Below, one piece after another: positions 1-6,001 of a stretch of DNA of 27,524 nt. Made by a program: the position numbers and the translations under genes. Where the stretch lies: positions 1-27,524 of IMG/VR virus record IMGVR_UViG_3300030102_001625; one strand, 5' to 3'. The stretch comes from a virus. The notes beneath the pieces were generated by a model. It made no database searches. It was not told the DNA's origin and saw only the letters and a program-made list of their open reading frames with translations. The first letter of the stretch is position 1. Each line of letters opens with the position of its first letter.

Positions 1-858
1 TAGTCCCAAGGTAGCACATAGAAACATAGTTCCCATCTCTGCTACTAGTTCTTCCTGAGAGTAGGTATCGCTTCCAAAAGGCGCATAGCTAACCAAGGTC
101 TTCCTGTTTAGGATTTGAGCATTCCCTGTGCTATGGATTAACTCATGGAATAAAACCTTGTAGTAGTCATCCTCTTTACCCTGACCAAACTTGTTCTTCG
201 TCTTGAAGGATGCTCTCTTTGGCATCTGAACATGATGGGTACTAGGTTGATAGTAGGCTTTGTTTCCACCATGGTCTAGGCTAGGTTTCTTCCTCATGTT
301 CTTGACCACATCCTCAGCTTTATCTAGTGGCTTGAATGTCACATCCTCAGTAGTAGTGTCCTTGATTTGGAACTTTGGTTGGATATCTCCTTCTAGCTGA
401 CCAATGTTGAACATCGGTGTAGATGTAGGGAAGAATCTCTTCTCGAATCTGTCATCTAGGTCTTCACTACTAAGCTTTAGCTTTGATGTTAGCTTCTTGA
501 ACTCTCCCATGGTTAACCACTTGTTCTCTTCTTTGTCTTTAACCTTGAGATACCATCCCACTAGATGAGTGGCTTTCTGTGATTTCTTCAGCTTGTATTC
601 TTGCTTGATAATCTGCCCCATGGTTAGCCATTCGTTGTAAGCATAGCCTTTATCTAGTGCTTCTGCTGTAGTTACCCATAGGTTAATCATGTTCTGATAA
701 GCATATCCTGTGATGTGGTTTACAGGGTAATTTGTTGACCCATCTGAATTAGTCCATGGTTTAAACCATTCTAATCCTTTTTCCTTTAGTCCATCAATGA
801 CCATGTTTGTAATCCTGTCGTAAATGTCTACTTTTTTGTATGTTTTCTTCTTTGGCAT
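1..858 (-). CDS. ardC: ArdC-like antirestriction protein, C-terminus cut by window edge
   Basis: The frame is open from the ATG at 858 down to base 1, giving 286 codons with no stop, so the C-terminus lies outside the window. The N-terminal part (about residues 10-130) has the look of the ArdC single-strand-DNA-binding domain, with VDIYDRIT, WFKPW and a YAYQNMINLW segment. A zincin-like metallopeptidase part follows, with HELIHSTG at about residues 238-245 (HExxH) and EELVAEMG about 25 residues later, which should supply the third ligand. In plasmids and phages this family protects incoming DNA from restriction. The start follows the TAG stop of the upstream gene by two bases. It is the last visible gene of a leftward string. 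Leucine is mostly CTA here, unlike the TTA-rich rightward genes. The family call is strong; the target in this host is unknown. Confidence 0.87.
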   Translation of the reverse strand, partial: MPKKKTYKKVDIYDRITNMVIDGLKEKGLEWFKPWTNSDGSTNYPVNHITGYAYQNMINLWVTTAEALDKGYAYNEWLTMGQIIKQEYKLKKSQKATHLVGWYLKVKDKEENKWLTMGEFKKLTSKLKLSSEDLDDRFEKRFFPTSTPMFNIGQLEGDIQPKFQIKDTTTEDVTFKPLDKAEDVVKNMRKKPSLDHGGNKAYYQPSTHHVQMPKRASFKTKNKFGQGKEDDYYKVLFHELIHSTGNAQILNRKTLVSYAPFGSDTYSQEELVAEMGTMFLCATLGL

Positions 859-860
859 AT

Positions 861-1034
861 CTAGTGTTTTAGGTAAACTGTTAAAAATGTAATATTGCCC
901 ATTCCAAAAATGATAAGGGCAGCTACTAAAGCCTCTCTAGTAGGAAATCCAATGTGCAAAGCACATAGTAAGCAAATGCTAGAAGTGGCATATCCTATAC
1001 CACTCACTAGCTTCATTAAGTTTTCTTTTTTCAT
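861..1034 (-). CDS. Small two-helix membrane protein, unknown function
   Basis: A 57-residue protein with two hydrophobic stretches, about residues 8-29 (KLVSGIGYATSSICLLCAL) and 36-53 (ALVAALIIFGMGNITFLTVY), separated by a short polar turn with Arg, so a small hairpin membrane protein. I chose the start at 1034 because it lies two bases after the TAG stop of the upstream gene (TAG-AT-ATG), exactly the spacing at its own junction with the ardC-like gene. An in-frame ATG at 1070 would give 69 residues but would overlap the upstream gene by 34 bases. I do not recognise the family. Its place in an early operon beside an antirestriction gene would fit a superinfection-exclusion or host-membrane role, but that is speculation. 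Confidence 0.6.
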   Translation of the reverse strand: MKKENLMKLVSGIGYATSSICLLCALHIGFPTREALVAALIIFGMGNITFLTVYLKH

Positions 1035-1036
1035 AT

Positions 1037-1411
1037 CTAGCGTTCTATCTTGATTAACATTTGTTTCCATATCTCTTGAAGATGTTCTAGCGTTCTCTCT
1101 GCTTGTCTCATGGTGGCATGATGGTGGGCAATGTACTTGGCTTTATCTTTGCTCATTTCTAGCCTGTCCTCTATGGTCTCATACTCATCTAGAGAATGGT
1201 CTACCTTGATTTTTGAAGACATGATTACACTATCTAGTTCATCCTTCAGGTTAAGGTAAAAGTTCGTTATCGCTAGGTTATGATTGCAAGTTCTATGAGT
1301 CAAATCTGTATCCCACGCTTCTAGTTCTTCATCGCTATGCATCTCTCTGCTTGATTCTAGGAGGTTTCTCTCTTGGAGTAGTTCCTCTACTAATCCTCTA
1401 TACTTTTTCAT
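1037..1411 (-). CDS. Charged helical (coiled-coil) protein, unknown function
   Basis: A 124-residue, strongly charged protein predicted by eye to be almost all helix, with repeated Leu/Glu/Lys patterns (EELLQERNLL near the start, RTLEHLQEIWKQML near the end) typical of coiled coils. A His cluster (AHHH) lies near residue 95. I do not recognise a family. Translation starts just after an AACCAAAAAG element that recurs twice further upstream on this strand. The TAG stop is two bases from the start of the next gene, suggesting coupled translation. The codon choice is odd: seven of eight leucines followed by G are CTA, but only one of eight followed by another base is, so CTAG is favoured over other synonymous choices. 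Confidence 0.7.
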   Translation of the reverse strand: MKKYRGLVEELLQERNLLESSREMHSDEELEAWDTDLTHRTCNHNLAITNFYLNLKDELDSVIMSSKIKVDHSLDEYETIEDRLEMSKDKAKYIAHHHATMRQAERTLEHLQEIWKQMLIKIER

Positions 1412-1429
1412 TTTTCTATCCTTTTTGGT

Positions 1430-1570
1430 TTAAACTAATTCGAATTTCATTCTCTCATCTAGAATCTCCTGAGCAAGTAATGAATGCTCACTTCTAGTCT
1501 GAACTATGTTCAACAGTTCTTCGTTAGTTAATTCTAAAGCTTGTACTAGGTTTCTCAATTTCTTTTCCAT
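1430..1570 (-). CDS. Small helical peptide, unknown function
   Basis: A 46-residue reading frame from the ATG at 1570 to the TAA at 1430, encoding a mostly helical charged peptide (begins MEKKLRNLVQALELTNEELL). It lies 18 bases upstream of the next leftward start and shares the strand, CTAG-rich composition and amino-acid style of its neighbours, which is the main support for calling it real. It would be the first gene of the leftward string, with a possible terminator or attenuator hairpin 30 bases before its start. No family recognised. Confidence 0.5.
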   Translation of the reverse strand: MEKKLRNLVQALELTNEELLNIVQTRSEHSLLAQEILDERMKFELV

Positions 1571-1600
1571 GATTTCTTGGTTTAAATCTTCTTGGCATAT

Positions 1601-1620
1601 CAAAAAAGGTCTCCGACCTT
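1601..1620 (-). terminator. Hairpin plus T-run, leader terminator or attenuator (leftward)
   Basis: Read leftward, the sequence is AAGGTC-GGA-GACCTT followed by TTTT: a six-base-pair stem with a three-base loop and a T-run. It stands about 30 bases before the start of the 46-residue gene, so it would stop or attenuate transcripts arriving from the CTAG-rich region. Confidence 0.55.
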
Positions 1621-2198
1621 ATCATCAGCACTAGGTTGCCAGACCTAGTGGACTAGATTAGACTTCATGATGCGTTTCGGTGTTTGTTCGATTACTTCTA
1701 GTGACTTATGGTAGGCTACTAGGGGTGTCGCTATCGTTTAATGTTTCCGCTTAACCCTTTTTGGTTTACCATCTAGTCCTTATCTACACCTACTCGGTCT
1801 GCTAATCTAGTTTCGATTTCAGAATTTTCATCCCCTCAATCCTTTTCCTAGGTTATTCTCTCTACTCTCACTAGGTTGTTCTCAGATTTAATCTAGTATC
1901 TGAACGCTTCCCATCTAGGAGATTCCAGAGGCGCACCTCCTTCGCTCTATCCTTTTTGGTTGGCTAAACCTAGTTACCATGAAAGTCCACTAGGTTAGCT
2001 ACTGCTCTTATCATGGCAGTCTTCTAATCTAGCGTGTAATCTAGTACTTCGGATTCATATCTGACCTTTGGAAATTATCTCTACCTAATCTAGCGTTCCT
2101 TGAACTCTTCAACTAGTACCCAATCTAGGAATTGGCACGTTCGCATCTAGTGTAAGGTAGGTCAGCATGTAAAAGAACGATGTCAGCGAGTGACACTC

Positions 2199-2206
2199 CA
2201 AAGATA
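2199..2206 (-). promoter_or_regulatory. Candidate leftward promoter (TATCTTTG)
   Basis: CAAAGATA on the plus strand reads TATCTTTG leftward, matching TAnnTTTG. About 19 bases upstream on that strand is a TTTG (within CAATTTGTAAATAACG), close to the expected -33 position. It falls in the longest gap between CTAG sites in the region (2147 to 2259). A transcript from here would carry a leader of about 600 bases before the first leftward gene. Confidence 0.5.
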
Positions 2207-2545
2207 CAACCATTTTCGTTATTTACAAATTGTCTACGCATTTTTTACGCTTCCACATCTAGTTACATTTTTTTTATTGTAATATGTTCGCCTCATACCT
2301 AGGATCTAATCTAGTAGGATAAAATCAGCATTTTAATAGCTTGTCTTTGTAACTGCTTGACACAGAACAGGTTAGCAGGGGTCTAAATCTAGTGGGAATA
2401 TTTGCTATAATCAAGATGCTAGATGGGGCTAGGTAAAGACTCTCTGTCTGTAACCTAGAAATACTAGATTAAGGGAAGGTATTGGACTAGGTTTACCTAT
2501 CTAGTGAGGGAAGTTTGGCACTAGATTGGACATGGTAAGAGGGAA

Positions 2546-2618
2546 TGGCATAGACTAGGTTGGCGTATCTAGTCGAAGAGGAGTATTGATGCCAATATCC
2601 CTAGATGGCATCATCTAG
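2546..2618. other. Cluster of competing inverted repeats
   Basis: Four inverted repeats overlap here: TGGCAT/ATGCCA (2546-2551 with 2589-2594), GACTAG/CTAGTC (2553-2558 with 2569-2574), TGATGCC/GGCATCA (2587-2593 with 2607-2613) and CTAGATG/CATCTAG (2601-2607 with 2612-2618). Several share bases, so they cannot all form together. A related ACTAG...CTAGT pair with the same ten-base spacer lies at 2486-2505. Confidence 0.6.
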
Positions 2619-2864
2619 TACACACGTTTTTTTTCTTTGTTAGCCCACGCATGTGCATGGGTGCTTGTCTCTAGAAATATGTGCGCTATGTGGGGACTGC
2701 GCAAACCATGGAGACTAGGGTAGGGGCAGGTCAAACGTCCAAGGATCAAACCTAGTAGCCCTAGAGAAAAACGCCAAAAAATCCCACTGCGCTAGGTTAG
2801 AAATGCATTTCCACTAGGTTGTAATCTGATTTTTTTTTTGGGGGTGTCGCTGGTATTTCGCTAT

Positions 2865-2901: not shown

Positions 2902-2909
2902 TATCTTTG
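2902..2909 (+). promoter_or_regulatory. Bacteroidetes-type promoter -7 box (TATCTTTG)
   Basis: An exact TAnnTTTG match 16 bases before the ATG at 2926, with A/T-rich sequence around it. It should drive the single 2926-3129 gene, which ends in its own terminator. Confidence 0.7.
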
Positions 2910-2925
2910 TTTCAAAAGAATCATC

Positions 2926-3129
2926 ATGTATAGAGACAACAGCAAGCCAAGTGACCAGGGGTTCATCGTAAAGGATGGTAGATTAATCAATGACTCTAAA
3001 GGCACGATGTGTGGTTTAACTAAAGCTGCCATAATGAGAAAAGATAGAAAGAGAGCTGAGAAGGTTCGTATGATTGCTGAGGGCAATGAACTATCTAGAG
3101 CTAACTTAGACTTATTCAAGAAACTATAA
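2926..3129 (+). CDS. Small basic protein, unknown function
   Basis: A 67-residue protein rich in Lys, Arg and Asp, with a helical C-terminal half (AAIMRKDRKRAEKVRMIAEG). The N-terminal half includes GFIVKDGRLINDSKGTMCGL. I do not recognise a family. A promoter box 16 bases upstream and an intrinsic terminator 28 bases after the stop make it a free-standing transcription unit, which favours a real gene over the minus-strand frame that covers the same bases. It is the first rightward gene beside the CTAG-rich control region, a place often held by small early or regulatory proteins. Confidence 0.72.
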   Translation: MYRDNSKPSDQGFIVKDGRLINDSKGTMCGLTKAAIMRKDRKRAEKVRMIAEGNELSRANLDLFKKL

Positions 3130-5335: not shown

Positions 5336-5589
5336 AGCCAATAAACAAATATATAATAGTAGATGACATCAAAGAAGATGTAAAGACAGACAGTGGCCTC
5401 TTATTATCTGGCGAAGACAAGGAATCTTTTAGATATTGTAAGGCTAGTGTTATAGCCCCAGGCACTGAAGTAAATTCAATCGCCAAAGGCGATGTTGTGT
5501 ATTACGACAAAGCTCGGTCTTTTACTATGATTATAAGTGGGCATCCTCGCACTATTATTCAGGAGCGAGATGTCGTTGTTGTCGAATAA
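5332..5589 (+). CDS. groES: GroES-type co-chaperonin
   Basis: An 85-residue protein with the GroES layout. An opening strand NKYIIVDDI is followed by a mobile-loop region EDVKTDSGLLLSG, where LLL stands where GroES has the GroEL-binding hydrophobic tripeptide IVL. A core ASVIAPGTEVNSIAKGDVVYYD matches the GroES 'V..VG....VKVGD.V.F' pattern, and the end is RDVVVVE. The stretch that forms the roof hairpin in GroES is very short, as in phage T4 gp31. The start at 5332 overlaps the previous stop (ATGA) and gives the normal N-terminus; an upstream ATG at 5272 would add 20 unrelated residues. Together with the neighbouring groEL it should form a complete phage chaperonin. The last 35 bases overlap a gene on the other strand. 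Confidence 0.88.
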   Translation: MKPINKYIIVDDIKEDVKTDSGLLLSGEDKESFRYCKASVIAPGTEVNSIAKGDVVYYDKARSFTMIISGHPRTIIQERDVVVVE

Positions 5590-6001
5590 ACTCGTTCATA
5601 TCTTTAATCATCTTTCTGTACACCTTGTCTGTGTACTTGACATTTTTTAAAAACAAAGGATTGCTGGAGGGGGACTCAGGGATTTCTTCTCCAGCTAATT
5701 TTTTGTAGAAGGAGTCAATCATCTTTACTGCCTTATATGACACTTTGTATATTACCTTATTACCACTCTTGTGTCTCTTGAAGGTATCTATCCACCCAGC
5801 ATTAGTAAGTCTATAGAACCTATTATCATCCCAGCTATATAGAGATGCGTAGTTATCAAAGTCTTTTCTCTTAAAGTATTTTTCTGAGTATAGGAAAAAC
5901 AAAAGCTCCAGGTCTGGATAGCTTATATTATACTTGGCACAAAAGAAATATCTAATCACTCTATAATACTTTAGATAGTCTCGTGGTATGTAGTGTTTCA
6001 T
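5555..6001 (-). CDS. Putative winged-helix DNA-binding regulator
   Basis: A 148-residue protein with helix-rich N-terminal sequence (YISYPDLELLFFLYS-like order, then FKRKDFDNYASLYSWDDNRFYRL), followed by TNAGWIDTFK, KVIYKVSYKAVKMIDSFYKKL. This is the order seen in MarR/PadR-like winged helices: recognition helix, then a Gly-containing wing, then 'Y.lt.kg...i'. It is basic and lacks membrane segments. It is the only leftward gene between 2900 and the right end and overlaps the groES 3' end by 35 bases tail to tail, so the two transcripts are complementary there. It could control the adjacent chaperonin or small-protein operons. No clear promoter box was seen upstream. The fold call is from pattern only. 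Confidence 0.6.
   Translation of the reverse strand: MKHYIPRDYLKYYRVIRYFFCAKYNISYPDLELLFFLYSEKYFKRKDFDNYASLYSWDDNRFYRLTNAGWIDTFKRHKSGNKVIYKVSYKAVKMIDSFYKKLAGEEIPESPSSNPLFLKNVKYTDKVYRKMIKDMNEFIRQQRHLAPE

What the first reader, a model, noticed from the sequence alone, without database searches (positions are those of the whole stretch)
1037..1411. Leucine codon choice inside genes favours CTAG, not just CTA
In the 124-residue gene seven of eight leucines followed by G use CTA, but only one of eight followed by another base does. Over the four leftward reading frames my hand tally is about 17 of 25 against about 10 of 33. General CTA preference would not depend on the next base. This suggests selection or mutation acting on the four-base word itself. 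Other copies arise in other phases (CCT-AGT, TCT-AGC, ACT-AGA), which again argues for the word rather than the codon.
Basis: seen in the sequence. Interest (0 to 1): 0.76.

Follow-up and report, generated by a model that had tools for sequence, protein, structure and literature searches.

The report
CTAG-packed early-region array in phage
A virus of probable flavobacteria packs the four-letter word CTAG into the left end of its sequenced fragment about four to six times more often than expected, in genes and between them, in a pattern that looks like a long array of protein landing sites at the junction of its early and late genes.

Summary
In the 124-aa gene, Leu codons before G are CTA in 7/8 cases, otherwise in 1/8; over four leftward ORFs 18/26 against 10/35 (p=0.002), with no such effect in rightward genes. 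The whole left end (1-2820) holds 64 CTAG against 17 in dinucleotide shuffles. The densest part is a 1.3-kb stretch without long ORFs (about 1 per 33 bp), ending just before the rightward GroEL operon.

A relative (about 85% nt identity; near-identical IMG/VR contigs G001/G002) shares it. Window 1660-2640 is 99.2% identical there, the most conserved segment of the alignment. Other relatives lack it. Flanks are symmetric (AAHCTAGDTT), no two sites in the noncoding part lie closer than 8 bp, and spacings cluster near multiples of about 11 bp. Best explanation: an extended array of CTAG-centred binding sites for a dimeric DNA-binding protein, acting in early/late transcription control or replication. 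The binder, the methylation state and the function are not shown. Looser relatives carry a different dispersed palindrome in their early regions, so this may be a very dense variant of that theme. No described match was found in the papers searched.

The parts
1..2820 (.). CTAG-dense region: 64 CTAG; right edge at the last dense copy (2814-2817); left edge not reached (contig end)
   Evidence: 64 against 17.0 +/- 3.8 in dinucleotide shuffles; next copies at 3095 and 3506
1431..2820 (.). densest part, 43 CTAG, about 1 per 33 bp, mostly without long ORFs; symmetric AAHCTAGDTT context; spacings 8-14, 20-23, 30-35
1660..2640 (.). segment 99.2% identical to relative G002, the most conserved in the whole alignment; noncoding (34- and 10-nt indels)
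1..858 (-). ArdC-like gene (ArdcN + MPTase-PolyVal), cut by the contig end; 9 CTAG, against 1 in the L006 homologue (50% aa identity)
861..1070 (-). 69-aa ORF of unknown function, 5 CTAG
1037..1411 (-). 124-aa ORF named in the finding, 8 CTAG (7 as Leu CTA + G); no relatives found
1430..1570 (-). 46-aa ORF (57 aa if the TTG start at 1603 is used), 3 CTAG
2199..2206 (-). possible leftward promoter element TAnnTTTG inside the array (consensus match only); GC-skew minimum at 2299
2902..2909 (+). possible rightward promoter element TAnnTTTG just beyond the array; surrounding 2858-2914 is 81% identical in L006
5555..6001 (-). 148-aa protein, weak MarR-like winged-helix prediction; candidate (unproven) reader of the array

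Best explanation
The left end is an extended DNA-level array of CTAG-centred sites (loose consensus AAHCTAGDTT), bound by a dimeric sequence-specific protein of phage or host. Binding on repeated faces of the helix would make a nucleoprotein structure across the divergent early/late junction and into the early genes, and so control early against late transcription and/or start of replication. Coding sequences in the region have been bent toward the word through synonymous codons. Shown: the excess, its edges, its sharing with one relative, codon and noncoding contributions, symmetric flanks. Suggested by statistics: spacing rules and site conservation. Inferred: a protein binder, its identity, and the function.
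For: Excess of 64 against 17, independent of coding and of transcription strand: CTAG is dense on both sides of the skew switch at 2299. Synonymous shuffle 25 against 15.2, 0/20,000. Symmetric flanks over 3 bp each side (-1 G 5/86; -2 A 40/86, chi2 14.3). No spacing under 8 bp in the noncoding part (P=0.004); spacings cluster with a period of about 11 bp (P=0.0005 to 0.013 by null model). Shared with G001/G002: 41 of 43 sites retained, two gained, only 1 of 44 substitutions falls in CTAG columns (5.3 expected, P=0.023). Noncoding array 99.2% identical while genes are 69-96%. Relatives MW202828 and L007 have a dispersed 16-bp palindrome GTGTC-N6-GACAC in the same early region (14 and 10 copies), absent from the window.
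Against: No binder identified. The spacing analysis was made after looking; under the stricter null P is only 0.013-0.039. The high identity of the array could come from recent recombination, which also reduces what the conservation test can say. Only two independent genomes carry it. A four-base core is short for a specific operator. The near relative L006, with a homologous junction, lacks the array.
Confidence: 0.55

Rival explanations
1. Methylation-controlled region: CTAG is the target of a host or phage DNA methyltransferase, and dense sites act like GATC in an origin (sequestration, timing) or protect entering DNA.
For: A bare 4-bp palindrome is the usual form of a methyltransferase target; the local density is high and lies at a likely divergence point. 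Relative L007 has no CTAG at all in 21.6 kb, as well as no GATC, CATG and AGCT, which fits restriction pressure on such words in the hosts of this group.
Against: Symmetric flank preference and helical-like spacing are not expected for a bare methylation site. No methyltransferase is visible in the fragment, though most of the early region is missing. The rest of the window neither gains nor clearly avoids CTAG (63 against 79).
Confidence: 0.2
2. Local mutational or gene-conversion bias (nicking enzyme, repair patch, deamination) writes CTAG into this region without function.
For: A sharp edge and a region-limited excess could reflect a local process; CTGG is absent from the noncoding part (0 against 2.9 expected).
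Against: Neighbour words are not consistently consumed. Differences from G002 are of several kinds (CTCG/CTAG, GGCAGG/GCTAGG, CTAG/CTAA). CCT-AGY in place of CCN-TCN needs more than one change. The flank symmetry extends beyond the word.
Confidence: 0.1
3. RNA-level signal: CUAG in early transcripts is bound or cut by a protein, or forms part of long structured noncoding RNAs in 1600-2820.
For: 1.3 kb of near-identical noncoding DNA; one 200-nt window has a low folding energy (1901-2100 +, z=-4.7).
Against: Most windows have no unusual folding energy on either strand; no Rfam family reaches its threshold. Density is equal in leftward and rightward sectors.
Confidence: 0.08
4. Foreign or recombined segment: the left end was acquired from a CTAG-rich source and its composition is a relic.
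For: The array is the most conserved block against G002, as recent exchange would give.
Against: ArdC, the small ORF at 2926 and the junction promoter are syntenic and homologous with L006. CTAG dependence on the following base within codons is not a composition effect. Scans of IMG/VR and GTDB contigs found no CTAG-dense donor, though these were limited in reach.
Confidence: 0.07

Closest known systems
Cluster O mycobacteriophage 17-bp palindromic repeats (Corndog; PMC4351075)
   Same: many copies of a dyad-symmetric word, some inside coding regions, denser at one genome end, function unknown
   Different: 34 copies of a long exact 17-bp repeat across a whole genome; here a 4-bp core with loose flanks, 43 copies in 1.4 kb
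Operator/stoperator sites of cluster A mycobacteriophages L5/TipsytheTRex (PMC9283540)
   Same: more than twenty dispersed binding sites of a phage repressor in promoters and short intergenic gaps
   Different: those are asymmetric 13-mers bound by a monomer and oriented with transcription; here symmetric, palindromic and ten-fold denser locally; no lysogeny genes seen
GTGTC-N6-GACAC palindromes in relatives MW202828 and L007 (this work)
   Same: dispersed palindromes in the early region of the same phage group
   Different: 16-bp, perfect, about one per gene and largely intergenic; could also be RNA hairpins; absent from the window
GATC clusters of E. coli oriC (own knowledge)
   Same: dense 4-bp palindrome in a control region, about 1 per 20-30 bp
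   Different: GATC is read through Dam methylation and SeqA; here methylation is unknown and the region is at least 2.8 kb including genes

Membership tests
Dispersed phage operator/stoperator system | many copies of a conserved site in early/regulatory region | tested here: met
   64 CTAG in 2.85 kb, z=12
Dispersed phage operator/stoperator system | consensus long enough to be specific (13 bp or more) | tested here: not met
   invariant core 4 bp with loose symmetric preference over 10 bp
Dispersed phage operator/stoperator system | phage-encoded repressor that binds the site | not testable with these tools
   148-aa MarR-like candidate only by weak prediction (pLDDT 63.5, best Foldseek E 2.7e-3)
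Methylation-sequestration origin (oriC/GATC type) | dense palindromic methylation target at an origin | tested here: inconclusive
   dense palindrome at GC-skew minimum 2299, no DnaA boxes found
Methylation-sequestration origin (oriC/GATC type) | cognate methyltransferase and hemimethylation reader | not testable with these tools
   early region mostly missing from the fragment
Flavobacterial podovirus group of MW202828/elemo/Cellulophaga phages | shared terminase, portal, capsid, GroEL/GroES module | tested here: met
   terminase 73% aa to MW202828, 45% to elemo phages; PHROG terminase, portal, GroEL
Tandem repeat or satellite array | head-to-tail repeat units | tested here: not met
   repeat families of 2-3 imperfect copies only; sequences between CTAGs differ

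The most novel reading that the evidence does not exclude
A phage control region in which a degenerate 4-bp-core palindrome at a density of one per three helical turns, imposed also on coding sequence by synonymous codon choice, nucleates a helically phased nucleoprotein filament that separates early from late expression or starts replication; a kind of dense-word control region not described for phages.
Probability: 0.3. Interest if true: 0.82.

Novelty: new variant of a known kind. Interest (0 to 1): 0.62.

Why it matters
A short word that bends codon choice in genes and saturates the adjoining noncoding DNA points to a DNA-level function strong enough to overlay protein coding. It gives a cheap and testable handle (one 1.4-kb fragment) on how an abundant, little studied group of flavobacterial phages switches between early and late programmes or starts replication, and it warns that codon preference in phage early genes can come from overlapping DNA signals.

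Tried and rejected
General CTA codon preference as the whole cause: rejected by the following-base test, synonymous shuffle and noncoding density, although a residual CTA excess without G exists. Tandem repeats: not found. tRNA/Rfam RNAs: none; a sub-threshold hammerhead type II hit at 1682-1612 (23.4 bits, threshold 37) was judged chance. RNA folding: no consistent signal. ArdC and 124-aa proteins: no close relatives in IMG/VR beyond L006. L006, L007, MW202828 and an elemo phage have no CTAG array. DnaA boxes: none. Whole early region could not be recovered: contig ends at position 1, G002 ends at window 1407. Paper searches for CTAG enrichment in phages found nothing relevant; the library lacks most subscription journals.

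Full report
What is there. The window is a 27,524-base virus record, a fragment whose left end cuts a gene. Terminase, portal, a virion protein and GroEL match PHROG families; the terminase is 73% identical (aa) to MW202828 (Manatee Spring) and 45% to Flavobacterium elemo phages, with Cellulophaga phages also matching. So this is a podovirus-type phage of probable Flavobacteriia; the host is inferred. Genes right of 2926 run rightward, except the 148-aa ORF at 5555-6001; ORFs left of 1603 run leftward. The leftmost is an ArdC-like gene.

The codon observation. Synonymous shuffles keep protein and codon usage and still fall short: 15.2 expected, 25 seen, 0/20,000. Leu-only and non-Leu shuffles both fall short (92 and 109 of 20,000), so the word is favoured in more than one phase. 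With the codon usage of the rightward genes, the left proteins would carry about 5 CTAG. CTA is also raised without a following G (p=0.0009), which the word hypothesis alone does not explain.

A regional feature. The 64 CTAG in 1-2850 compare with 17.0 +/- 3.8 in local dinucleotide shuffles; the noncoding 1431-2850 has 43 against 9.1. After 2817 the next copies are at 3095 and 3506, and the rest of the window has 63 against 79 expected from composition. The array straddles the GC-skew minimum at 2299 and ends before a TAnnTTTG element at 2902; that this is the promoter type of Bacteroidota is my own knowledge.

Relatives. A pattern scan found two IMG/VR contigs with 32-33 CTAG per kb. They are 99.96% identical to each other, so count as one genome, here G002; it aligns with window 1407-27524 at roughly 82-86% in most blocks. 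In the alignment 41 of 43 sites are shared, two are lost and two gained; 1 of 44 mismatches falls in a CTAG column where 5.3 are expected (P=0.023). Window 1660-2640 is 99.2% identical, the highest of any 900-nt stretch; the next, around 5561-5921, reaches 96% and includes the 148-aa gene. This may be constraint or recent exchange; I cannot separate them. Indels of 34 and 10 nt argue against coding there. L006, whose junction is homologous (GroEL 72%, ArdC 50%), has no array, so it arose or was lost within the group. Its ArdC gene has one CTAG where the window has nine; two Pro-Ser pairs read CCT-AGY in the window and CCN-TCN in L006.

Fine structure. Around the 43 noncoding sites, read on both strands, G is avoided at -1 (5/86) and A preferred at -2 (40/86) and -3 (36/86): AAHCTAGDTT. 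No spacing is under 8 bp (P=0.004). Spacings cluster at 8-14, 20-23 and 30-35, none at 15-19; the best period is 11 bp with P=0.0005 (minimum spacing 4) or 0.013 (minimum spacing 8), period optimised in the simulations as well. I noticed the pattern before testing it, so I treat it as suggestive.

Mechanism. A palindromic core, symmetric flanks, steric spacing and helical phase fit a dimeric DNA-binding protein in a long array. The junction position suggests early/late control or replication start. A candidate is the 148-aa protein, predicted with modest confidence as a MarR-like winged helix (pLDDT 63.5, best Foldseek hit MarR 3bpx at E=2.7e-3). Against it: its relatives in L007 (59%) and MW202828 (41%) occur with GTGTC-N6-GACAC palindromes instead, and L006 (75%) with neither. 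The link is a guess.

Novelty. Dispersed phage sites are known: cluster O 17-bp palindromes (PMC4351075) and L5-type stoperators (PMC9283540). I found no report of a 4-bp-core array at this density imposed on codons as well, but the library is partial. I file it as a new variant of the dispersed-site kind, with the protein, the modification state and the function unproven.

Noticed in passing
L002/L003 (MW202828 record 43745-55154): 14 perfect copies of the palindrome GTGTCGTTAACGACAC in the early region, mostly just before genes; operator, or hairpin element (promoter or processing site).
   Followed up: partly
L007 2090-13302: 10 copies of GTGTC-N6-GACAC (typical GTGTCYTTGARGACAC), several in intergenic gaps before early genes; same theme as MW202828.
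   Followed up: partly
L007, whole locus (21.6 kb): No CTAG, GATC, CATG or AGCT at all (81 of each expected from composition), a strong avoidance of several 4-bp palindromes.
   Followed up: no
window 1-27524: CCGG and CGCG absent (29 of each expected) and GATC 24 against 89 expected: likely restriction avoidance.
   Followed up: no
window 5555-6001: 148-aa leftward gene among rightward genes, MarR-like by weak structure match, about 96% nt identical to G002, 99% aa.
   Followed up: partly
window 1606-1620: Terminator-like hairpin on the - strand (AAGGTCGGAGACCTT + T run), missing from G002 through a 21-nt deletion.
   Followed up: no
window 1415-1430, 1946-1961 (and 1748-1766 imperfect): Repeated element TCTATCCTTTTTGGTT, on the - strand just upstream of the 124-aa gene start and again within the noncoding part.
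   Followed up: partly
L125 2302-2525: Local cluster of about 14 CTAG in an otherwise CTAG-poor contig, AT-rich and repeat-like; unrelated phage, not examined.
   Followed up: no
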